DNA of 64,000 nt from Puccinia triticina. Lineage: Eukaryota; Basidiomycota; Pucciniomycetes; Pucciniales; Pucciniaceae. A model generated the notes under the pieces. It searched no databases and was not told where the DNA came from. It worked only from the letters and a program-made list of their open reading frames with translations. Made by a program: the position numbers and the translations under genes. Below are positions 38,501 to 57,162 of the stretch, piece after piece (within the stretch, counting starts at the first letter, position 1; each line of letters starts with the position of its first letter). Location of the stretch: assembly GCF_026914185.1 (NCBI RefSeq), contig NC_070560.1, forward strand, positions 1,524,001 to 1,588,000, written 5' to 3'.

Positions 38501-39027
38501 AAACAAAAAAGGCGACCCCACCGGTTGCTGCAAGATTATATAAAGGGAGGCTTTTGAGCAAGTAAAAGCCTCCCCAGATTCATACCAACCATTTTGCAGT
38601 ACCGCCAGCCTTGCCCTCGTCTATCCAACTTGTTTGCCAGCCTGCCCGTCCTTCGATCTCGGTTCCTTTGAGTCATCTGTTGCCTTTTTTGTTGCGGACT
38701 CTCTCTCCGAGTAAGTCTGCTATTTTTGTTTTCATATCGGGATTTTATCCCAAAGCATCTCCTGGGAACGTTTTATACATTCTAAATACCCCCTTAACTG
38801 GGCCCCAGACATCACAGGCTTTAAAACACCTCTGCGCACCCGTGCGCAGACCCTGTAAGACTTTTGGGGGGCACTTAAACACCCCAGGCGCTCCTGGCCC
38901 CTCCGTTAAACCCCATTTTGGGTTCATTAAAAATAACTTCAAAGTTATTCTGCACTTTTCACCGCGCTTTTGCCGCACGCACCACCGCACCGCTGCGCAG
39001 TCAAGGTAGCTCTGGGCTCATAACCTG
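38500..39027 (+). repeat. Diverged gypsy LTR relic (gypsy-2 relatives)
   Basis: The order of blocks matches the 3' half of the gypsy-2 LTR: TATATAAAGGGAGG (38537), donor-like CCGA|GTAAGTC (38710/38711), GGGATTTTATCCC, GGCCCCAGACATCACAGG, CCCTGTAAGAC, GGGGGGCACTTAA and CCCCTCCGTTAAACCCCAT. It ends near CTCATAACCTGTA. The left boundary could not be placed. It preserves the A|GTAAGT donor used in my model of the leader gene. Confidence 0.65.
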
Positions 39028-39048
39028 TAAAGACTGTAAAATGAAGAT

Positions 39049-39133
39049 GTGTCTGGTGAGAGTCGAACTCACGACCTCAGCTATGCTGAGACACATACTA
39101 GAGTGCTGCCTTTACCAACTAGGCTACAGACGC
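39049..39133 (-). tRNA. tRNA-like gene, probably type II, possibly decayed
   Basis: Acceptor GCGTCTG/CAGACAC (one C-A mismatch), then TA, D stem GCCT/AGGC with loop AGTTGGTAA, a six-pair hairpin CTCAGC-ATA-GCTGAG in the place of a long variable arm, T arm GTGAG-TTCGACT-CTCAC, discriminator A. The A box (TAGCCTAGTTGG) and B box (GAGTTCGACTC) are good, and a TTTT terminator follows within 12 bases. The anticodon arm is poor (GCAC/GTGT with an oversized or short loop containing CTAGTA), so the isotype is uncertain: Leu(TAG)-like by discriminator and long arm. It may be a pseudogene. Confidence 0.6.
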
Positions 39134-40445
39134 TGTAGGACTTGTGTGGGACACTAAATATAATTTGGTGAAAATATCCTCTGAGGGGGAAATAAATTGC
39201 TAATAGGTTGAAAGGCTATTACAACTTACGGGTGGTTTGAAAGACCTGCCCCTCTAATGGTACTATGCAAATAACTAAGAGTCTTGTAATCAATATTTAT
39301 AAAGATGTGGCTGATTCCAAGATAGATCTTACTTTTGTATAGTAATCTCTATCAGACCTAGATTCCTCAAATCACTATTCTTGCAGATCTGTTACAACTT
39401 CTGATGCTGGAGGGATAATGTAATCCAGTGGGATCAATTATGTAAAATACAATTGTTGTTGATGTTGGGTTGTTGATGAGAAGGTTGGTAATGATCTCTT
39501 CCTTAAGCAATCTCTTGATAAGGCACTTTAATCAATACTAGAGCTCCTGGTTGCTACTACACTACTACTACTTGTTATAATTGTTGTTGATGAAGTTGGT
39601 AATAATCTCTTCCTTAACAATCTCTTGATAAGGCACTTTAATTACTACTAGAGCTCCTGACTACTACTACTACTACTGACTCAAACTTAACACTACCACT
39701 ACCACTACCACTACCACTAAAATACCACTAAACTACCACTGTAACTAAACTAAACACTGTGACCAAACCTCTGTAGGCTGATGGGGAAAAGTCTGGTGAG
39801 GGGGGAAAGGGCCTCCTTATATATTGAAGGGTGAGGGATTTTTGCTCCAGGGAAGCTCCTCATGAGGGATTATTGCTGCAGGGGATCTCAACTACACAGC
39901 CTCTCATGCATGTACTGCGCTGCATGTGCAAACAACGAGGGGTTTATGCTGCAGGAGACACTCAACTACACAGCATCTGCATGCGTGTGCTGCACTGCCT
40001 TACAAACAATGAGGGATTTATGCTGCAGGAGACGCCTCCTATACATCTTATCTACCTGCATATGATGTGCTTCATGTACAAACAATGAGGGATTTATGCT
40101 GCGGGAGGCACTTCCTGTACAGCTTATCTACCTGCATATGCTTCACTATGCATACAAACAATGAGGGATATATGCTGCATGAGGCACTTGAGCTACACAG
40201 CACTTTCATGCATGTACTGCGCTGCATGATGTCATGTGTTGCTATGCAACCAAGCCATCTTCCATCCTCTTCCACACACTCTGCATCCACTGTCCAACCT
40301 GTTCCATTCCCAATGTTGAGGGTCAAGGCCTCTCCTCCCATCTTGCTCCTTCTTCCCTACTTCCCCCGCACTGTATTACACACTCCCTCTACTATAATAC
40401 CTCTGCAATGGGCTTTTGGCATTGTCACGCATATGGAACACCACA
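39134..40445 (-). repeat. Solo LTR of the LARD-type family, abutting the tRNA-like gene
   Basis: 1312 bp, same ends (TGTAGGACT, GAACACCACA) and content as 4635-6129, but with one fewer 110-bp unit. It is flanked by ACGC (39130-39133, 40446-40449). No internal sequence remains, so LTR-LTR recombination is likely. The left ACGC is the first four bases of the tRNA-like gene, so the LTR joins its position 1. Confidence 0.9.
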
Positions 40446-40449
40446 ACGC

Positions 40450-41548
40450 TTGTGGCTGCCAGCTGGGTGGTTGGTTGGTAGTGCTCATGGGTCAATCCAA
40501 CAGCCCTCCATACTGTGGTGATACATCATGGTAGCAGACTAACAGACAACTCAACATGTAGCAATGTGATGGCTGTGCTGGACAAAATGGCCGCTTTTTT
40601 TATTGTACCGCGGCGGTTACAATATGCTACAGTGCTTGGCTATTCCCCAAAAATTTCAGGAGCTTTAGAACAACTCAAGAGTATTTGTGTCAAGATTGCT
40701 TGAAGCTGTGCCAGTGGTGAACTACACCATTGTTGTAAGAGACAGAGAACCAAGCAAGTCAACAGATACAACCAGCAGAATTTGATGTCAGCCAGAAAGT
40801 ACAAAAAATAATATTCTGCACTGTCATTTCTCTCATTGATCAGAGCGGGAGGGGGTTTAGAAATTTACTTAGATAATTAACAATGTTTGATTTTAAAGTA
40901 ATAGAGCTTTACAATCAAACATTGTTAATTCTAATTATTGGCCCATGTATATCAAATTCTGACTCAGATTTGATAACAGCTGGTGAGATACTTGTCTAGT
41001 CAGGATCTGACAGCTGCATATCACAGAGGAGGCCTATCCAGGATGAACAAAAAGGGTTTGGCCAGTCCGCCAATAAAATAGGAGGGAGGTGGTAGCATCA
41101 AGGCAGGGATCAGTGGTCGGGGACGTCCAAGATGATTGGCAAGAACATATGATGGGCAATTATATGTGCCAGTGTTCTTCCAAAGATCCTCCTTGATTAT
41201 GCTGAGTGCCCCGGTCAGGCCAGTCTGCGTGAGAACTTCGTCGGGGATGAGAGTGGTGTCCGGAGGACGCGGCCAGCAGCAGCACTCACTGGGACGGAGA
41301 GCAGAATACAATAGGAGCTTGTCAATGTCGCAGACGGGACCATTGGCGGGGGTGTGCGCCAAACCAGGAACTTTTGGATCACTACCTGGGGCCAACAGAT
41401 GTTTGGGAATCCCAACCCAATGGGCTTTGGCTGCTTCAGACAGGGATGAGCCAGCGGCTTCTGGGACTGAAAATTAGGCTGACGCTTGTATTGGCATCTG
41501 CCTTGGCCATGCTTGGGGTGCCTGGTCAAGCATTCTCCGGCTGCACGG
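40450..41548. other. No supported gene; contains a perfect foldback
   Basis: AATTAACAATGTTTGATT at 40875-40892 and its exact reverse complement at 40913-40930 form an 18-bp perfect stem with a 20-base loop. A minus-strand open frame (41021-41395) has no ATG and no domain I recognise. Confidence 0.45.
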
Positions 41549-47154: not shown

Positions 47155-47345
47155 CAGCTCTCTGAGCCCTTGATTGCCGGCACAGACCGGCCAATGAGAC
47201 CATACAACCCTCTGGATGACCGGTACAGACCGGTCATCAAGGGGATATGTACAACGCCCTGGATGACTGGTACAGACCGGTCATTGAAGGGATATGCACA
47301 ACCCTCAATGACCGGTCTGTGCCAGTCATTGAGGGGACTCAACCT
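47155..47345. repeat. Palindrome array 4 (GACCGGTACAGACCGGTC)
   Basis: Four units of about 60 bp, each centred on TGACCGG-TACAGA-CCGGTCA or a variant, flanked by CCCTC/GAGGG. The core matches arrays 2 and 3. Confidence 0.8.
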
Positions 47346-47565
47346 GACTGGCGGGTGCTCTTTGGAGACATCTGAGGTGGATTTGTTGTTGGGCATGTTG
47401 GGACAGTTTTTCCTAATGCTTGTTCGGGGGTTGCAGCCTTGGTTTCATCCATCTCTTCTCTACTCACCGGCGCATTGGTGAGCACAGTCCTCAAACTAGC
47501 TACACCTTAGGCAAGGTGGGGTAATTGAATGAGGGCCCGTGTTAGATTATGAATCTGGTAACTCA

Positions 47566-47636
47566 GGCTTCGTAGCTTAGTGGTAAAGCAGGCACCTAGA
47601 GCTAGCCCAACCCGGGTTCAAGTCCTGGTGGAGCCA
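47566..47636 (+). ncRNA. tRNA-like unit inside the TRIM LTR
   Basis: GGCTTCG pairs fully with TGGAGCC (two G-U pairs), then TA, D arm GCTT-AGTGGTA-AAGC, T arm CCGGG-TTCAAGT-CCTGG, discriminator A. The A box TAGCTTAGTGG and B box GGTTCAAGTCC match the polymerase III consensus. TTTT follows 5 bases after the unit. The anticodon arm keeps only three pairs (GGC/GCC), so it is a tRNA-derived promoter and not a working tRNA. A second copy starts at 47776 and was broken by gypsy-2 at 47843. Confidence 0.75.
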
Positions 47637-47650
47637 TTCCTTTTCTGACA

Positions 47651-47666
47651 GATTTACAGTCTTGAG
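47651..47666 (+). promoter_or_regulatory. Half-tRNA-Tyr primer-binding site of the TRIM
   Basis: GATTTACAGTCTTGAG starts directly after the LTR. Its complement CTCAAGACTGTAAATC is the anticodon arm of tRNA-Tyr. The first 12 bases are identical to the copia-2 site at 22822. Confidence 0.8.
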
Positions 47667-47786
47667 CTCAAAGAGCCAAGTGTACCTGCAGAGGAGAGAG
47701 CACACTAGCGGGTTTAGGAGAGCCTTAGAGCATCCAGATTCTGGGAGGATGTTATATTATGAATCTGGTAACTCAGGCTTCGTAGC

Positions 47787-47818
<32 letters not shown>

Positions 47819-47843
47819 AACCCGGGTTCAAGTCCTGGTGGAG

Positions 47844-49093
47844 TGTCAGCCGGGCTACCATTCTAGAATAGAGCCCCGCCTGCAGCTCCGGTAGCGCAGC
47901 CAAGAGCACCGTAAACCGGGTGCAGAGCAGACCGCAGCGCGGATCTCTGCGCAGCATAGATTTGTTTTAAATTGTTTTAAATATTACAAATAGCTTCCTA
48001 GAGAAGCTAGACACCAACGGGACCGCCGCGCGGTCCAGAATCTCTTCTGTACAATATATCCCAACTAGGTACAAGTAACAAAAACAAGGGAGCATGTATA
48101 AAAAGACCCACTCAGAAGACCCACGTAATACTCAGCAGACAGCCACTGGTTGCGCGAAAACTACGTGGGCTTGTTAGCGGCTAAATCACTCAGCCACGCG
48201 ATACAGAGTACTGTAGTACCTGGTCGCATGGAAACAACAGCCGCCAGTAGGCGGCTAAACAATCAAGCCACGCGACTCAGAGAACTACAGTACCTGGTCG
48301 CGTGGTAGCAATCTTCTTCCGAGCTCCGTCGCAGCAACAGTAGCGGAAAGACTCGGACACGAATCGCCGAAGAGCTCCGCATAGGAACCGACTCCTAGTG
48401 ATCCTCCACTCGAGAGCAGAGGATCTCTAGCGTGTCATTTCGAGTAGAACTCTTTAAACGAGTTCCGAGAAGAAAGAATCTTCCTTGTGACCGGTATCCA
48501 AGAGATACGGGTCTTGCGAGTAGCAAGACCAGTAAAGAGGCTGTGCCTTCCAAAAAAATGTATTGGAAGGCCATCCAGGAGAATAGCGAGCCGACGAGCC
48601 TCCCAGAAACAGCATAAAAGCCGGTGTTGGGAGGACTCTGGCTCCCCAGAATCGTCAATCACTTTAACCGCCCAGCAGCGCACTACTTCGCCGAACATAT
48701 TCGTTGATCAGTTCGCTCTCAGCTTGTGTTAGATTGTTTTTAGATTCATTGCTCGTCGCTGGACTCCTGCTCCAACAGTAAGTCCAGCTCATTTTCTCTT
48801 TATCATCTCGGGAGTAATCCCCATCAATTATATACTTGGGAACTTGTCGAACAACCCCCGCTTGTCGGACCCCAGACAACACAGGACATACTACCCCTGC
48901 TTGTCAGGCCCTGTAAGAACCGCCCCGGAGGGCACCTTAACCATTCCGCTGCTCTCGCGGCCCCTCCGTTACATCCCATCAGGGATATAAATCTTTATAA
49001 ACCATCATCTTACCGCATCTACAGACGCGCCCACTCGCCGCAGTCACTCGTGTAGCTAGAGGACTTCGTGTCTTGGCATCACCGAGCCTGACA
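47844..49093 (+). repeat. 5' LTR of gypsy-2
   Basis: 1250 bp. TATA-like boxes lie at 48097-48105 (TATAAAAAG) and about 48612 (CATAAAAG). A consensus splice donor A|GTAAGT lies at 48777/48778, conserved in the LTR relic at 38711. Confidence 0.94.
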
Positions 49094-49861
49094 ATTGGGG
49101 GTCTGGCCGGGAACTTATCCCAAAAAACCAGAAAAAATCCTACTATTTCGTCTATCTGACGATTAACCAAACCAAACCTACCTCTAAAATTCTTTTAGCT
49201 TACATCACCGTTAGATTGTGTCTAGAAAACTCTGCAGTTTGAGCACGGCGCGCTATATCGCACCATTAGATTGACCTTTTAGTCTAGTAAAGCTCAAAAA
49301 CCGCGCTCTTTCGCGCGCAACTTACCCCTGAACAATTCTGAAGCTACTAATCCTTCAGAATTATCTCCTATCATCTCTTTACTCGCTTTTGAACCTCCCT
49401 AACTTGCTTTTTGCGTTCTTATTTTTCCACATCAGTGGCTCATTTACAACAGAACGCCGAGCTGATTCAATATTACCTCCGCTATCTTAAACTCAGAAAC
49501 GAAGAGTTTATTAAAAACTACCAGCCGGACGACTTTGAAAAGTTAACCTGCGAAGAAAGAATCCAACTCGGCACGATCCTAGTTGAAAAGAGCAAGAAAA
49601 AAGATTTAGAGGCTCGAATCACTCTGAACTTTCTACTCAACGAACACCGGTTGAATAGAATTCAAAGAAAAAAGGAAAGAAGTAAATCGCTTTTTTTTTT
49701 GCGTACTTAAAAATTTACTTTGAAAAATTCTAACAAATTATTGATTCTTCCGCTTAGTGGCCGAACAAAACAAGGAAAAAACAAGCTCCTTTACTGCAAA
49801 AGAAGCCGAGAAGTTTGAGAATCCCGTATTAAGCGATTCTGAAGCGGACGAACTCGGTTAG
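48777..49861 (+). CDS. Spliced leader protein of gypsy-2
   Basis: Predicted exons: an LTR exon ending at 48777 (A), then 49436-49681, then 49758-49861. Intron 1 (48778-49435) has donor GTAAGT, branch CTAAC and a pyrimidine-rich acceptor CATCAG. Joining A to TG makes the start codon in a good context (CAACATGG). Intron 2 (49682-49757) has donor GTAAAT, branch CTAAC and acceptor GCTTAG. The product is about 116 residues: helical core NAELIQYYLRYLKLRNEEF and KKKDLEARITLNFL, and acidic tail LSDSEADELG. It resembles the gypsy-1 leader protein throughout. The coding exon has no ATG of its own at the right place, which supports the spliced start. Function is unknown; subgenomic expression from the LTR promoter is inferred. 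Confidence 0.6.
49094..49113 (+). promoter_or_regulatory. Putative primer region of gypsy-2
   Basis: ATTGGGGGTCTGGCCGGGAA follows the LTR, identical to the 20 bases after the unrelated-looking gypsy-1 LTR. The conservation implies function. I cannot name a tRNA ending in the complement, so self-priming or an unusual tRNA are both open. Confidence 0.5.
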
Positions 49862-49936
49862 TCCAAGTTTCTCTTGCAAATAATCCGTATAAAAACACTA
49901 AAACATAAATAAATAAATAAAAAAACATAAACTAAC

Positions 49937-52900
49937 ATGTCCACCCGATCGAGCAGACCCGATCTCGAAGGACCTCTGTCCACCCCCAAGAGGCATCCTA
50001 GACAAGCCACCGGCGGCGGAAGCCGAGGAAGTGGCGGAAGAGGAGGAAGCCGCGGAGGAGGAGGAAGCCGCGGAGGTAGCCGTCGAGCCTCCCAAGGAGA
50101 AGACTCCGAAGCTGAGCTCCCTGAAGTTCAAGAAGAAGAACCCAGCTCCGGTTCCGAGTACCTCGACGACCACCTCGACCAATCCGGCGAGGACTATCCT
50201 CAAGACGAAAGAACAGCTAATCAAGCTGGACAAGACCAAGGACTTAGTCCGCGACCACGTCCTGAACTGGCAGGAGTGTGTAGCTCTCCAAGCGAAAGGA
50301 GGAGCGACAGAAGAGCTGCGAACAGCTCTCCGCAGAGCTCAAGAGAGCCAGAAAATGGCGCAGAAGTTGATGGCTCAAAAACAGCTAGAGTCTTACGTCG
50401 AGGGTTGGAATCCTTGGACGGTGATGAAGCAACTCTACCCAGCCAGAAACACCGGGAAAAAGCGCAAAGCACCCCCAACTCAAGCAGCCAGAGACAACGT
50501 CATCCGATGGAAGCGTCTGATGAAGGTGGCGGACACACTAGACAAAGCTTACGATCACCTACAATAGACAGAGACTTTATTTTTTCTTTGTTTGAGAATG
50601 TATACAGTAATCTAGACAAATTACATTACAACTCAAATAATTACCATAAAACTACTGTCTCCAAAATTATTGATTGTTATAAAGCCACGAGTAACATGAT
50701 TGAGACCGGCGTAAAAAAATCTCTGGAATTGTCCCAAGAACCTTTTGTTAAGATCCCAGAACTGAGAGAAATAGTTCAGAAAACTGAGAGAGAACTCCGT
50801 GACATAGTTAAAACTGTTGCTGCAGTAAGAGACTCCAATCTCACAGCGCAGGACAAATTAACTGATCTTGACATCAGCCTGGCGGACTTCAAAAATGAAG
50901 TAATCACCATGATTAAATCTGAGATAATGGTAGCTCAGCGTGAGCGTGAGGAGCACCAATCTGCTCAGTTACGAATTCTAATTGACCTTGTCAGTAACCA
51001 GGATGACACAATCAAAGAAGTTGCCAAACAAATCACTCAGTCTGTTTCGGAACAAATTAGCACTTTGAAACTTGAGATTAAGTCCCTTAAACAGGCAGCC
51101 TCTGGGATTCAAACTCCGCCCCACATGACCAATAAGGCGGAATCCATTGTTCAAGAAGAATTACAATTTAATAACCCTTTCTTGAACACAAAAGAGAGAG
51201 TCTTTCAAAATAAAGAAAGATCAATGCCTCCCAAAAAAGAGGAACCTGTTGAACAAACCCCTCCTTACCAAAACCAAGCAAGACAGACCACATCATATTT
51301 GAGCAACTTTGATATTTTCGCAATGAACAAACTCTTGCCACCCATCAAAGAATGGCCCAAATTCACCGGCGAAGGAGAATATGATCACATATACTTTATG
51401 AATTACATAGATCATCTCCTTGAGTCCTACGAAGCGTCAGATGAAATAGTGACATCCAGATTACCCCGATTGTTTGAAGGCATGGCCTTAGATTGGTTTG
51501 TAGGAAAAAAGAAATCAGTTGGCAAAATCAGCTGGAAGGAATGGAAGAAACTGATCCACTTACAATACGGCACTGACGTCTGGGAAGATAAAATGCTTGC
51601 CGCATATGAAACCGATTTCTTTGACCCTATGAAACATGTGCCTTACAAATGGTGCTTGACACAAAAGAAGAGAATTGACTGCATATATGATCAACCTTCT
51701 CAAAAATTTGTCACCAAGAAAATATTGAAAAAGTGTCGGGGTGACTTAGAGCATGATGTAATGTGTCGCCTGCGGGATCCTGACGTAGACTTAGCAGAGT
51801 TAGCCTCAGTTATAGAATTGGTGATTGCTGCAAAAGGTTTAGATAAGAAGCCCAAATCTTATGAAGAAAGAAAGAGTGCTGTGTATAGAGATAATGCGCC
51901 CACCGGCACAAAACCTGCTGAAACTGCGCCAAAGAAGGCTAATATTCCTGAGTGTTATAATTGCGGGGAAAAGGGCCATAAGAGACCTGAGTGCCCCAAA
52001 CCCCGCAGAAGGATTAATAACATTGAGGTGTTTACAGATGACGAAGGCGACTCTGACACTGGATCCCAGTTTGATATAGTACATTTTGAAAATGACCGGG
52101 AGAGTGTCACCGGGGATTGTGGCTCCGAACCAATAGCCCGCTGCAACGTGATTCAAGCAGACTTGGGTGACCCCCTTCACATTACAGTAATCCAAGGTGA
52201 TTCAAACTTGCCACAAAAATGGAACCCTTCCGCTGGAGTCGGACATGTATCTGATGCCAAATTGATGACTAATAAGCCAGAAGAAGGTATGAGTTATACC
52301 CTAGGCAAAACAAGTTACACTACTGTTCTCTATGATGGTAAAGAAGTTAAAGCTCTCCTAGACATTGGAGCCTTCTGTTCATGTACCAGTACCAACTTGT
52401 TGAGCCGGTACTATCCAAGATGGCGGGAGAAATTACTCCCAACCCCGCGTGCCAAGTTTAGTAGTTGTAATGCTGCACTTAAGCCTATAGGAGTTGTAAA
52501 GATGCCACTAATTTTCCCGCACACCAAGGGTTCACTTAGACTACATATAGAATTTGTAGTGTTAGAAGATGCTGTGTGTGATTACCTAATCTTGGGGAAT
52601 GATGCATTCTGTCTTTACGGGATAGATGTTTTCCAAAGTAAAGACAGGTTCTACACTATAGGTGGAGATTGGAAAAGGAAGTTTGAGATATGTAACATCA
52701 ATTTTCAGAGCCCTGTAAAAGGAAACCAAGACGAGAAAGAGCTGAACCGTTTCCGTCAAGATTACATGTCTCAAGCTGCTGTCAGTGACACACTGAGCAA
52801 AGACCAACATCTAGATGTGTTAAAAATTTGCTTTGAACATGAAGAAGCTTTTTGCACAAAAGAGGAGCCCATAGGCAATATCTCCGGACATGACATTGAG

Positions 52901-55849
52901 ATAGAACTTACTTGCAAACCTCCTTATCCCCCCGCGCTAAGGAGAGCGGCGTATCCCTCGAGCTCTAAGTCCCGCGAAGCACTAGAAATTCACATTAAGG
53001 AACTTCTAGAACTTAAAGTATTGAGGAAAGTAGGCCATAATGAGCAAGTGGAAATAACTACACCAGTAATAATAGCATGGCATAATGAGAAGTCCCGCAT
53101 GGTAGGAGACTTTCGAGCGCTTAACAATTATACGAAAGCGGATAATTACCCTATCCCCCGTATAGACCACTCGTTACATAACTTGGCTAACGCGAAGTTT
53201 ATCACGACAATGGACGTGCTTAAAGGTTTCCACCAAATTCCTATTAAGGAAGAGAGTAGGCAATTTATGAGAATTATCTGCCACTTAGGTGTTTACGAAT
53301 ATTTGCGCATGCCTTTTGGTATTAAAAATGCGCCGTCCCACTTTCAGCGTATGATGGATACCATATTCGGATCTTTTATCCGACAAAGCTGGATGATGGT
53401 GTATATAGATGACATCATCATATATTCTACGGACTGGGAGGAACATCTTGAGAAAATAAGATTAGTACTCAAAACGGCAATAAAATCCGGTTTGAAAATG
53501 TCCATTAAGAAATGCAACTTTGGATTCAAAGAACTTAAAGCCTTAGGCCATATTGTCTCAGGTTTATCACTAGCTATAGATCAAAATAGAGTGGCGGCAG
53601 TACTACTCAAACCTATGCCACAGACTATTACGGAAATGCAGTCATTTCTTGGATTCTGTAGCTATTACCGTCAACACATCCCTAGGTTTGCAAACATAAC
53701 CAAAAGTTTGTATGAACTATGTAGCAAGGATGTATTTTTTGAGATGACCTACGGGAGAGTAGAAGACTATGAGCAGCTAAAGAGACTCATAACCACTGCC
53801 CCTGTCTTAGCTCAACCAGATTACGCTCTACCATTCATCCTGTACATAGATGCTTGTTTTGAGGGAATAGGCGCCGCGTTACACCAAGAATTCATTATAG
53901 ATGGAGTACCGGTAGAAAAACCAATCTTGTTCATATCAAGACAAGTCCGTAAAACAGAGATGAGATACGGCGCTAGTCAGATGGAATGTCTCTGCCTTGT
54001 TTGGGCATTAGAAAAATTACACTACTATCTGGAAGGTTGTAAAATCATAGTAGTCACCGACTGTACTGCTGTGAAAACTCTCATGAATATGAAAACACCT
54101 AACCGTCACATGCTCAGATGGCAAATCGCAATTCAGCAATATAGAGGCCACATGACTATAATTCATAGAGCGGGAGCTAAGCATACTAATGCCGACGGAC
54201 TAAGTAGATGGGCTCTACCCAATACTCCAGATAACCCAGCGTACGACCCAGAAGATGAGGATGTATTTCCAATCTTAGGCATTCATGTATGTGACATTGA
54301 TGATGTATTCTTCGAAGAGGTCAGAGTTAGTTACAGTGAAGATATGGAGCTAGTTAAATTAATCAATATATTGGACAATGAAAACAGCGCGCCAGAATTG
54401 ATTGCTAGTCTACCGGAGAAATGGCTGACTCCTTACAAAGCCGGACAATTCACACTCTTAGACGGCATAATTTATTTTCGCCATAGACATTCTAGCGTAA
54501 TTGTGCTAAGCAAAGAGAGTCACATAAAAAATATGTTACAAGAATGCCATGACAATGTTGGTTCCGGTCACTTCTCCGAAGAGCGTACCGTTGAAAGAGT
54601 CAAACAAACCGCCTGGTGGATTGACTGGAAAACCCAGGTTAAAGAATATGTTAAGTCATGTGAAATTTGCCAGAAGTCTAACAAGCAAACCGGCAAGAGA
54701 TTTGGATTATTACAAACCATTGCGGAACCAAAAACGCGGTGGGAAATAATCAACATGGATTTTGTAACTGGCCTACCCCCTGGAGGACCTTTCTCCTACA
54801 ACTCTGTTCTAGTAGTAGTAGACAGGTTCTCAAAAAGAGCCAGGTTTATCCCGCATCATAAAGATGATACAGCTATGGAAGTAGCCATATTATTTTGGAA
54901 TAGAATAATGGCTGACGTAGGTATCCCAAAAATTATTATAAGTGACAGGGACCCTAAATTTACATCAGAATTTTGGCGAAACTTGCATGATATGCTGGGT
55001 ACTAAACTAGCTTTTTCCACTGCATACCATCCGCAGACAGATGGCCTAGCAGAACGCATGATACAAACATTAGAAGACCTACTCAGAAGGTTCTGTGCGT
55101 TTGGATTAGAGTTTAAAAACAGTGACGGGTACACGCATGATTGGGTCAACCTGTTGCCAGCATTAGAGATGGCATATAATAGCAGCAAACATTCTACTAC
55201 AAAAGAAACGCCCTACATCTTAGAAAGAGGATGGATACCGCGGTTACCTAAGGATACTATTAATGATAAATTACCTGTAGCCCACCCAACCGCCGCGGAC
55301 TTCAAAAAGATGTTAGACGCAACAAATTCTCACGCAGCCAGATGTGTCCAAGAAGCAGCAGAGTATAGTAAAACTCGCTGGGACAAAAGTCACAAAGAAC
55401 CTGAATTCCAAATAGGAGATCCAGTGCTTCTGTCCACAGTGAACTTTAATAATCTGGGAGGTAGCAGAAAACTGAAACCCGCGTTTGTGGGACCTTTTGT
55501 CATTAAGAACCTACACGGTAAAAATGCAGTAGAAGTAATTTTGACAGAAGAATTCAGTAGGAAACACCCTGTGTTTCCCGTAAGCCTTATCAAGAAATAT
55601 GTTGCAAGAGCAAATGAAGTGGTCCCCAAACCGTTACCGGTACCCATAGAAGAACCTTCAAAGAAAGAACAACTTAAGGTACATAAGATCCTCAAAGATA
55701 AAAAGGAGAGGATTTCAGGAAAAGATACAAGGTTATACCTTGTAAGATACAGAAACCAATCTGCAGATAAAGATGAATGGCTGCCAGAAGACAACATCCC
55801 GGACGGTGCAATTCACCTACGTAGCTACAGAGCTTCTAAACGTAAATAA
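49937..55849 (+). CDS. gypsy-2 Gag-Pol polyprotein with C-terminal chromodomain
   Basis: 1970-residue single-frame polyprotein from ATG 49937. Approximate residues: Gly/Arg/Ser-rich N-terminus (1-210) overlapping a second conserved frame, coiled-coil segment (230-390), Gag core with [13 protein letters not shown] (about 510), CCHC knuckle [14 protein letters not shown] (672), protease [10 protein letters not shown] (806), reverse transcriptase YIDDIIIY (1155) and RNase [12 protein letters not shown] (1301). Integrase has a zinc finger (1543-1578), [11 protein letters not shown] (1606), SDRDPKF (1668) and the Glu of LAERMIQ (1703). The chromodomain ([16 protein letters not shown]) is at 1913-1961. 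It is closely related to gypsy-1 Pol but clearly a separate family by its LTRs. Frame intact; purine tract GTGGTGGGGAA precedes the 3' LTR. Confidence 0.95.
49938..50567 (+). CDS. Overprinted frame in the gypsy-2 gag region
   Basis: The frame +1 to Gag-Pol is open from the Gag start to a TAG at 50565-50567. It carries an acidic Glu/Ala-rich stretch (from about 50031), a [13 protein letters not shown] linker, then a helix-rich domain with [27 protein letters not shown] and [15 protein letters not shown]. The last 110 residues match the gypsy-1 overprinted frame far better than the two Gag frames match each other, and both stop at the same homologous point. No ATG precedes the conserved domain, so +1 frameshifting soon after initiation, non-AUG initiation or splicing would be needed. 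Confidence 0.65.
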
Positions 55850-55898
55850 TTTTAGAAAGTCAGCTAAGTTAAGAGTAACTTATCTTGGTGGTGGGGAA

Positions 55899-57135
55899 TG
55901 TCAGCCGGGCTACCATTCTAGAATAGAGCCCCGCCTGCAGCTCCGGTAGCGCAGCCAAGAGCACCGTAAACCGGGTGCAGAGCAGACCGCAGCGCGGATC
56001 TCTGCGCAGCATAGATTTGTTTTAAATTGTTTTAAATATTACAAATAGCTTCCTAGAGAAGCTAGACACCAACGGGACCGCCGCGCGGTCCAGAATCTCT
56101 TCTGTACAATATATCCCAACTAGGTACAAGTAACAAAAACAAGGGAGCATGTATAAAAAGACCCACGTAATACTCAGCAGACAGCCACTGGTTGCGCGAA
56201 AACTACGTGGGCTTGTTAGCGGCTAAATCACTCAGCCACGCGATACAGAGTACTGTAGTACCTGGTCGCATGGAAACAACAGCCGCCAGTAGGCGGCTAA
56301 ACAATCAAGCCACGCGACTCAGAGAACTACAGTACCTGGTCGCGTGGTAGCAATCTTCTTCCGAGCTCCGTCGCAGCAACAGTAGCGGAAAGACTCGGAC
56401 ACGAATCGCCGAAGAGCTCCGCATAGGAACCGACTCCTAGTGATCCTCCACTCGAGAGCAGAGGATCTCTAGCGTGTCATTTCGAGTAGAACTCTTTAAA
56501 CGAGTTCCGAGAAGAAAGAATCTTCCTTGTGACCGGTATCCAAGAGATACGGGTCTTGCGAGTAGCAAGACCAGTAAAGAGGCTGTGCCTTCCAACAAAA
56601 TGTATTGGAAGGCCATCCAGGAGAATAGCGAGCCGACGAGCCTCCCAGAAACAGCATAAAAGCCGGTGTTGGGAGGACTCTGGCTCCCCAGAATCGTCAA
56701 TCACTTTAACCGCCCAGCAGCGCACTACTTCGCCGAACATATTCGTTGATCAGTTCGCTCTCAGCTTGTGTTAGATTGTTTTTAGATTCATTGCTCGTCG
56801 CTGGACTCCTGCTCCAACAGTAAGTCCAGCTCATTTTCTCTTTATCATCTCGGGAGTAATCCCCATCAATTATATACTTGGGAACTTGTCGAACAACCCC
56901 CGCTTGTCGGACCCCAGACAACACAGGACATACTACCCCTGCTTGTCAGGCCCTGTAAGAACCGCCCCGGAGGGCACCTTAACCATTCCGCTGCTCTCGC
57001 GGCCCCTCCGTTACATCCCATCAGGGATATAAATCTTTATAAACCATCATCTTACCGCATCTACAGACGCGCCCACTCGCCGCAGTCACTCGTGTAGCTA
57101 GAGGACTTCGTGTCTTGGCATCACCGAGCCTGACA
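55899..57135 (+). repeat. 3' LTR of gypsy-2
   Basis: 1237 bp, followed by the duplicated TGGAG and the last 17 bases of the TRIM LTR. Confidence 0.94.
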
Positions 57136-57162
57136 TGGAGCCATTCCTTTTCTGACAGCCCG

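What the first reader, a model, noticed from the sequence alone, without database searches (positions are those of the whole stretch)
47540..57157. A 321-bp LTR retrotransposon whose LTRs are a tRNA-like polymerase III unit
Seen: 111-bp LTRs, 99-bp interior, GCCCG duplication, half-tRNA-Tyr primer site, purine tract, and in each LTR an almost complete tRNA fold with consensus A and B boxes and a nearby TTTT. Known: plant Cassandra elements carry 5S RNA in their LTRs. I do not recall a tRNA-bearing equivalent in fungi (not checked). Inference: a hybrid of SINE-type transcription and LTR-type reverse transcription. It would solve the promoter problem of an element too small to hold a polymerase II promoter.
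Basis: partly seen in the sequence, partly recalled or inferred. Interest (0 to 1): 0.88.

Follow-up and report, generated by a model that had tools for sequence, protein, structure and literature searches.

The report
Tiny retrotransposon with tRNA-like ends
A 321-base mobile element in a rust-fungus-like genome carries a tRNA-like, polymerase III-type control region in each of its two repeated ends; elements of this kind were named Helenus in 2024, so the kind is known.

Summary
The window carries a 321-bp element (111-bp LTR, 99-bp interior, 111-bp LTR) flanked by GCCCG; a 9.3-kb Gypsy element splits its 3' LTR. Two programs call a tRNA inside the LTR. The primer site matches the host's spliced tRNA-Tyr at 17 of 19 bases; the three long stretches fetched at other such sites are Copia. 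The anticodon stem is broken. Polymerase III transcription is inferred, not shown. The LTR's T4 terminator is weak, which would let polymerase leave the 5' LTR. Side finding of more interest: a DNA transposon with CACTG ends and 3-bp duplications repeatedly lies in A boxes of tRNAs and tRNA-like TRIMs; Dada, the known tRNA-targeting transposon, differs in duplications and ends.

The parts
47535..47539 (.). 5-bp target site duplication GCCCG, left copy
47540..47650 (+). 5' LTR, 111 nt, TG...CA
   Evidence: same borders in paralogues that are not truncated
47566..47636 (+). tRNA-like unit in the 5' LTR (acceptor, D and T stems paired, anticodon stem broken)
   Evidence: ARAGORN; Rfam RF00005 43.8 bits; pair counts
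47573..47584 (+). A box (TAGCTTAGTGGT)
   Evidence: tRNA positions 8-19 in the Rfam alignment, (box limits recalled)
47615..47625 (+). B box (GGTTCAAGTCC)
   Evidence: Rfam alignment; variants counted
47641..47644 (+). T4, the only run of four T in the LTR; presumed weak polymerase III terminator
   Evidence: 54 of 59 LTRs have a run of exactly four, 5 have three, none longer
47651..47669 (+). primer binding site, complementary at 17 of 19 bases to the spliced anticodon region of host tRNA-Tyr
47743..47749 (+). polypurine tract GGGAGGA
   Evidence: sequence; last 9 bases of other interiors tallied
47750..47843 (+). 3' LTR, first 94 nt (including most of its tRNA-like unit)
47844..57135 (+). 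later-inserted Gypsy (chromodomain) element with one 1,970-aa open frame at 49937-55849; its duplication TGGAG is at 47839-47843 and 57136-57140
57141..57157 (+). 3' LTR, last 17 nt, with T4 at 57148-57151
57158..57162 (.). 5-bp target site duplication GCCCG, right copy

Best explanation
It is a copy of a Helenus-type TRIM (TRIMp3): a non-coding LTR retrotransposon moved in trans by a Copia element. Proposed cycle. (1) Inferred: polymerase III starts near the tRNA-like unit of the 5' LTR, guided by its A and B boxes. (2) Inferred: it passes the weak T4 in the 5' LTR, reads the 99-nt interior, and stops at or after the T4 of the 3' LTR, giving an RNA with the tRNA-like repeat (R) at both ends, a U3 of about 25 nt and a U5 of about 6 nt. 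(3) Primer site shown, use inferred: a Copia reverse transcriptase starts there with the anticodon region of spliced tRNA-Tyr as primer. (4) Sequence shown, use inferred: plus-strand synthesis starts at GGGAGGA. (5) Footprint shown: integration leaves a 5-bp duplication. (6) Products shown, route inferred: LTR-LTR recombination leaves solo LTRs and three-LTR arrays. The window copy was later split by a Gypsy element.
For: 49 paralogous loci fetched. Of 30 with both ends on one strand, 23 have identical 5-bp flanks: 12 of 16 two-LTR copies, 9 of 12 solo LTRs, 2 of 2 three-LTR arrays; controls 0 of 30 (flanks 5 bp further out) and 1 of 870 (mispaired). tRNA-like unit inside the LTR; in 44 distinct LTRs the acceptor, D and T stems are paired in 95, 99 and 97% of cells. 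Primer site versus five intron-bearing host tRNA-Tyr genes: 17 of 19. Three long stretches fetched at other places with this primer site (covering 4 of the 37 non-TRIM places among 67) carry Copia domains: RVT_2 in L099 (3e-50) and L100 (1e-32), Copia gag in L098. T4: 54 of 59 LTRs have exactly four T and none more; 18 of 18 tails of a second TRIM family have four; 15 of 26 host tRNA calls, picked by isotype after the list was seen, have five or more. In yeast, T4 supports very little pausing (PMC9278858, passages). Same kind in print: PMC10886601.
Against: No transcript data, so polymerase III use is unproven. Mean site diversity of the A box (0.027) is lowest but hardly below the 5' flank (0.031) and the anticodon arm (0.032), and that of the B box (0.084) is among the highest, its CpG being changed in 45 of 59 LTRs; so variation within the family does not show selection on the promoter. 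7 of 30 copies lack identical 5-bp flanks. RNA folding gives no stable cloverleaf. No Copia element sharing more than the primer site was found. The two T4 families are only two independent observations, 11 of the 26 host tRNA calls also have four or fewer T, and PMC9278858 notes that a nearby RNA structure can help release at weak T runs.
Confidence: 0.85

Rival explanations
1. A tandem SINE pair, or two tRNA-derived SINEs that happen to lie 210 bp apart, moved by a LINE.
For: A tRNA-like head with A and B boxes is the usual SINE2 promoter (general knowledge); three-unit tandem arrays exist.
Against: Termini are TG...CA without a tail in the window copy; flanking duplications are exactly 5 bp in 23 of 30 copies; single 111-bp units also have them (9 of 12); primer site and purine tract lie at the LTR borders; the two units of intact copies lie 210 bp apart on many chromosomes.
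Confidence: 0.02
2. A TRIM whose tRNA-like part is a passenger: an old SINE or tRNA insertion now carried along, with transcription driven by polymerase II.
For: The B-box CpG is changed in 45 of 59 LTRs and the boxes show no clear excess conservation within the family; the cloverleaf is thermodynamically weak.
Against: Only 26 nt of LTR lie upstream of the tRNA-like unit, little room for a polymerase II promoter; a second TRIM family in the same genome also has a tRNA-like unit in its LTR; [quoted passage not shown]
Confidence: 0.15
3. A functional tRNA-Ser(AGA) gene pair that was duplicated.
For: ARAGORN assigns anticodon AGA to both units.
Against: Two of the five anticodon-stem pairs form in 0 and 1 of 44 distinct LTRs; it is a dispersed repeat with target duplications.
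Confidence: 0.01

Closest known systems
Helenus (Kojima 2024, PMC10886601)
   Same: TRIM with a tRNA-like sequence in the LTR, 5-bp duplications in fungi, primer sites on the anticodon loop of spliced tRNAs including tRNA-Tyr, Copia elements with the same primer sites, solo LTRs; Table 1 lists ten Puccinia species.
   Different: No difference in kind found. Whether this exact family is among the published consensus sequences could not be checked (no supplement look-ups, no Repbase here). The T4 and A-box-transposon observations were not seen in the parts of the paper that I read.
Cassandra (plant TRIM with 5S RNA in the LTR; PMC7215508, passages)
   Same: Polymerase III-type small-RNA promoter in the LTR, non-coding, tandem arrays.
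   Different: Carries 5S RNA, not tRNA.
Ajax (nemertean TRIM with a partial 5S sequence; PMC10886601)
   Same: LTR with a polymerase III-type promoter, 5-bp duplications.
   Different: 5S-derived; animal.
tRNA-derived SINEs (SINE2)
   Same: tRNA-like promoter unit.
   Different: No LTRs or primer site; moved by non-LTR retrotransposons (PMC10886601 introduction).

Membership tests
Helenus | tRNA-like sequence within each LTR | tested here: met
   ARAGORN and Rfam calls at LTR positions 27-97
Helenus | box A with TRGCY and YGG, box B with GGTTC (most Helenus LTRs) | tested here: met
   TAGCT...TGG and GGTTC in the window copy; but 16 of 59 LTRs read GGTTTGA at box B
Helenus | TRIM size, no coding capacity (published range 311-1263 bp) | tested here: met
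   321 bp
Helenus | primer site and polypurine tract between two LTRs | tested here: met
Helenus | fungal form: 5-bp target duplications | tested here: met
   window copy and 23 of 30 copies with both ends
Helenus | fungal form, most families: primer site complementary to an anticodon loop of a spliced tRNA | tested here: met
   17 of 19 bases to five host tRNA-Tyr genes, across the intron junction
Helenus | autonomous Copia elements with the same primer site | tested here: met
   three of three fetched long stretches have Copia domains; nothing longer than 18-20 bases shared
Helenus | sequence identity to a named published family | not testable with these tools
   consensus sequences are in the supplement and Repbase; neither was available
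Helenus | polymerase III transcription | not testable with these tools
   no RNA or occupancy data; not shown in PMC10886601 either
Cassandra | 5S RNA sequence in the LTR | tested here: not met
   only RF00005 (tRNA) reached its gathering score in 47530-47850
SINE2 | no LTR pair and no fixed-length duplication (recalled) | tested here: not met
   LTR pairs and exact 5-bp duplications
functional tRNA gene | intact anticodon stem | tested here: not met
   two of five pairs form in 0 and 1 of 44 distinct LTRs

The most novel reading that the evidence does not exclude
The tRNA-like LTRs are landing pads for a DNA transposon family that none of the papers listed in my searches appears to describe: inverted ends CACTGC..GCAAACAGGTG, 3-bp duplications, end pairs spaced 111-112 bp and 1.05-2.5 kb, inserting in both orientations into the A-box region (about nucleotides 12-18) of tRNA-type polymerase III units. 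It would be a second route, beside Dada (6-7-bp duplications and, for its U1 and U6 types, no terminal inverted repeats), by which DNA transposons use polymerase III genes as sites, with Helenus multiplying the targets.
Probability: 0.5. Interest if true: 0.65.

Novelty: already known. Interest (0 to 1): 0.38.

Why it matters
As a TRIM it is an independent confirmation that a fungal Helenus behaves as an LTR retrotransposon (solo LTRs and arrays within one 5-bp duplication, primer site on spliced tRNA-Tyr), and it warns that tRNA counts in such genomes can be inflated. It adds two testable points: the terminators in two LTR families are runs of four T, weak enough for read-through of the 5' LTR; and the A boxes are repeatedly hit by one DNA transposon family, which would make polymerase III promoters a shared refuge for unrelated mobile elements.

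Tried and rejected
Tandem SINE, chance tRNA pair and functional tRNA gene were tested and rejected (see rivals). Host tRNA-Tyr was missed by three pattern searches because I first used an anticodon stem recalled from yeast; a looser pattern gave six places, five of them tRNA-Tyr genes and one (L101) not a tRNA. A longer region shared with an autonomous Copia was sought and not found: the 99-nt interior gave 42 matches (40 of 41 candidates scored); 41 lie in the window copy or the TRIM loci fetched here, one (C4:1817440) was not followed, and a diverged interior seen at L065 is not in that list. Selection on the boxes within the family was looked for by site diversity and not clearly seen. tRNA genes beside insertions were sought with ARAGORN in 60 flanks of 30 copies: none. 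A transposase for the A-box transposon was sought in the middle 2.8 kb of a 4.48-kb end pair (no open frame above 102 aa) and in three frames of other copies (no Pfam match). The pattern test was written after seeing the flanks; the BLAST test used tRNA references fetched before and is the fairer one.

Full report
OBSERVATION. LTRs of 111 nt (47540-47650; 47750-47843 plus 57141-57157), a 99-nt interior, TG...CA ends and GCCCG duplications are in the sequence. The 9.6-kb span is due to a 9,292-bp Gypsy element inside the 3' LTR, with TGGAG duplications, one 1,970-aa frame and RVT_1, RNase H, integrase and chromo domains. ARAGORN and Rfam each call a tRNA in both LTRs.

HOST. The genome has 122.8 Mb in 18 contigs. 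Chromosome haplotype assemblies of Puccinia triticina have 18 chromosomes and 121.8-123.8 Mb (PMC10627818, passages). A second TRIM with a tRNA-like unit, whose anticodon I read by eye as AGT (ARAGORN leaves the isotype open), and a 207-nt interior resembles what PMC10886601 says of LTR-1_PTrit. The host is therefore probably a Puccinia, possibly P. triticina; no call names it.

PARALOGUES. A pattern from the B-box stretch gave 75 places at up to 3 mismatches, reversed control 0. I fetched 49 loci. In copies that are not truncated, LTR and interior matches mostly run from base 1 to 111 and 1 to 99. For 30 loci with both element ends on one strand, 23 have identical 5-bp flanks: 12 of 16 two-LTR copies, 9 of 12 solo LTRs and 2 of 2 three-LTR arrays; one further copy matches at 4 of 5. 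Controls: 0 of 30 for flanks 5 bp further out, 1 of 870 for mispaired flanks. The other 19 loci were left out of that count: 17 lack an end and 2 have mixed strands. Three-LTR arrays within one duplication are what unequal recombination between the LTRs of one insertion would give, the reciprocal of a solo LTR (inference).

tRNA-LIKE UNIT. Of 63 LTRs collected (61 from the loci, 2 from the window), 59 are 111 nt long and 44 of these distinct. Acceptor, D and T stems are paired in 95, 99 and 97% of cells; the anticodon stem averages 60%, two of its pairs forming in 0 and 1 of 44. So the promoter parts are kept but not a working tRNA. The minimum-energy fold is not a cloverleaf and is not more stable than shuffles. 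Mean site diversity is 0.027 in the A box, 0.031 in the 5' flank, 0.032 in the anticodon arm and 0.084 in the B box; no test of selection was made. The B-box CpG reads CG in 14, CA in 29 and TG in 16 of 59 LTRs, as expected from decay of a methylated CpG (inference).

PRIMING AND PARTNER. Five host tRNA-Tyr genes with introns were found. The 19-nt primer site is complementary to 17 of 19 bases of the spliced tRNA, its first 12 bases perfectly, and spans the intron junction, so the primer would be spliced tRNA cut in the anticodon arm. Sixty-seven places carry the primer site at up to 2 mismatches, against 2 for the reversed pattern; by their coordinates 30 belong to the TRIM loci and 37 do not. 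I fetched three long stretches that cover 4 of those 37. All three are Copia: RVT_2 in L099 and L100 (3e-50, 1e-32) and Copia gag in L098. They share 18-20 bases with the TRIM interior and no LTR similarity beyond chance matches of 10 bases. The interior alone gave 42 matches in the genome, 41 of them in the TRIM copies seen here.

TERMINATOR. The only run of at least four T in the window LTR is T4 at LTR positions 102-105; 54 of 59 LTRs have exactly four T there, 5 have three, none more. In the second TRIM family 18 of 18 tails (nine loci) have exactly four. Of 26 host tRNA calls of nuclear type (Asp, Lys, Tyr, Leu, Gln, Ile; out of 36 calls, chosen after the list was seen), 15 have five or more T within 30 nt, 5 have four and 6 fewer. 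In yeast, T4 is rarely a primary terminator and supports very little pausing, though a nearby RNA structure can help (PMC9278858, passages). Three of 31 full interiors hold a T4. A weak terminator would let polymerase III leave the 5' LTR, read the interior and end in the 3' LTR. This is an inference from sequence and rests on two families.

KNOWN KIND. Kojima 2024 (PMC10886601; seen: outline and abstract, search passages, the text from the start into section 3.7, the Discussion, and the figure legends and tables) defines Helenus as TRIMs with a tRNA-like LTR sequence, in fungi with 5-bp duplications, mostly anticodon-loop primer sites including tRNA-Tyr, and Copia partners; 113 families in Pucciniales; umbrella name TRIMp3. 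A search for Helenus with TRIM and retrotransposon returned that paper alone. The present element meets every Helenus feature that I could test. Whether this exact family is already in Repbase could not be checked.

SIDE FINDING: A-BOX TRANSPOSON. Several LTR copies are split at the same TTA of the A box by inserts with ends CACTGC...GCAGTG. The end CACCTGTTTGCnnGCAGTG occurs 36 times exactly in the genome, reversed control 0. Four of the 36 lie in this one TRIM family. Flanks of 33 were fetched and read; the other three had been seen in TRIM loci. By a pattern written after seeing them, 20 of 33 look like a tRNA cut in its D arm, against 1.7% of 127,800 window positions. By BLAST to tRNAs fetched beforehand plus the two TRIM LTRs, 12 of 33 match, 11 of them from the first base beside the insert (4 to TRIM LTRs; three rest on only 15 bases, E 6e-4; one is a tRNA-Asp at 97% over 60 bases), against 8 of 660 control stretches, all eight lying in TRIM copies of the window; 21 of 33 have no match. 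From the listed part (311 ends at up to 2 mismatches, reversed control 8) I picked end pairs by eye. Of 12 pairs noted, eight were examined on both flanks here; for P1 and P4 one flank and for P8 (L150) both had been seen before, for the other five none. 7 of 8 have a 3-bp duplication, and 4 of 8 restored sites are called tRNA by ARAGORN; P5 has no 3-bp duplication; P1, P3 and P6 look tRNA-like only by eye. Two 111-112-bp inserts in TRIM LTRs also have TTA on both sides; one of these two restored sites is called tRNA. No transposase was found. CACTG ends with 3-bp duplications suggest the CACTA superfamily (recalled). Dada, the known DNA transposon group of tRNA and snRNA genes, has 6-7-bp duplications, and several of its families sit at tRNA nucleotides 8-13; its U1 and U6 types lack terminal inverted repeats (PMC3706591, passages; PMC8869645, passages and section 15). 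Searches (5 listed; 2 listed; 10 listed of 47) showed no paper evidently about a CACTA-type element targeting tRNA genes; I judged by titles and abstract starts only, and most subscription papers are not held.

VERDICT. The side finding deserves its own follow-up.

Noticed in passing
L050, L051, L066, L085, L146 (same site as L093); L150 (C8:1057339-1058582); L117-L149; L153-L164: DNA transposon family with CACTG-type inverted ends and 3-bp duplications that repeatedly lies inside the A-box region of tRNAs, tRNA-like TRIM LTRs and other tRNA-like repeats, in both orientations. No transposase found.
   Followed up: partly
window 39004-39134 and 40446-40556, minus strand: Part of a second tRNA-bearing TRIM (215-bp LTR, about 207-nt interior; nine further loci L108-L116 each show an LTR pair). 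The LTR is split by a 1.31-kb insert whose 4-5-bp duplication falls at the first bases of the tRNA-like unit, reminiscent of polymerase III start-site targeting.
   Followed up: partly
L085 (114-nt LTR) and L088: TTATAA in place of TTA at the same A-box site, resembling excision footprints of the A-box transposon.
   Followed up: no
59 LTRs of the family, LTR positions 80-81: The CpG of the B box is changed in 45 of 59 LTRs (CA 29, TG 16), the pattern expected from CpG deamination, which may disable promoters of old copies.
   Followed up: partly
window 47166-47337: Array of about 45-bp repeats with palindromic ACCGGT cores just upstream of the TRIM; 69-84% similar to stretches in L150-L152, within or beside copies of the A-box transposon.
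   Followed up: partly
L052, L066, L080: Three-LTR, two-interior tandem arrays; the two with both ends intact (L052, L080) lie within one shared 5-bp duplication.
   Followed up: yes
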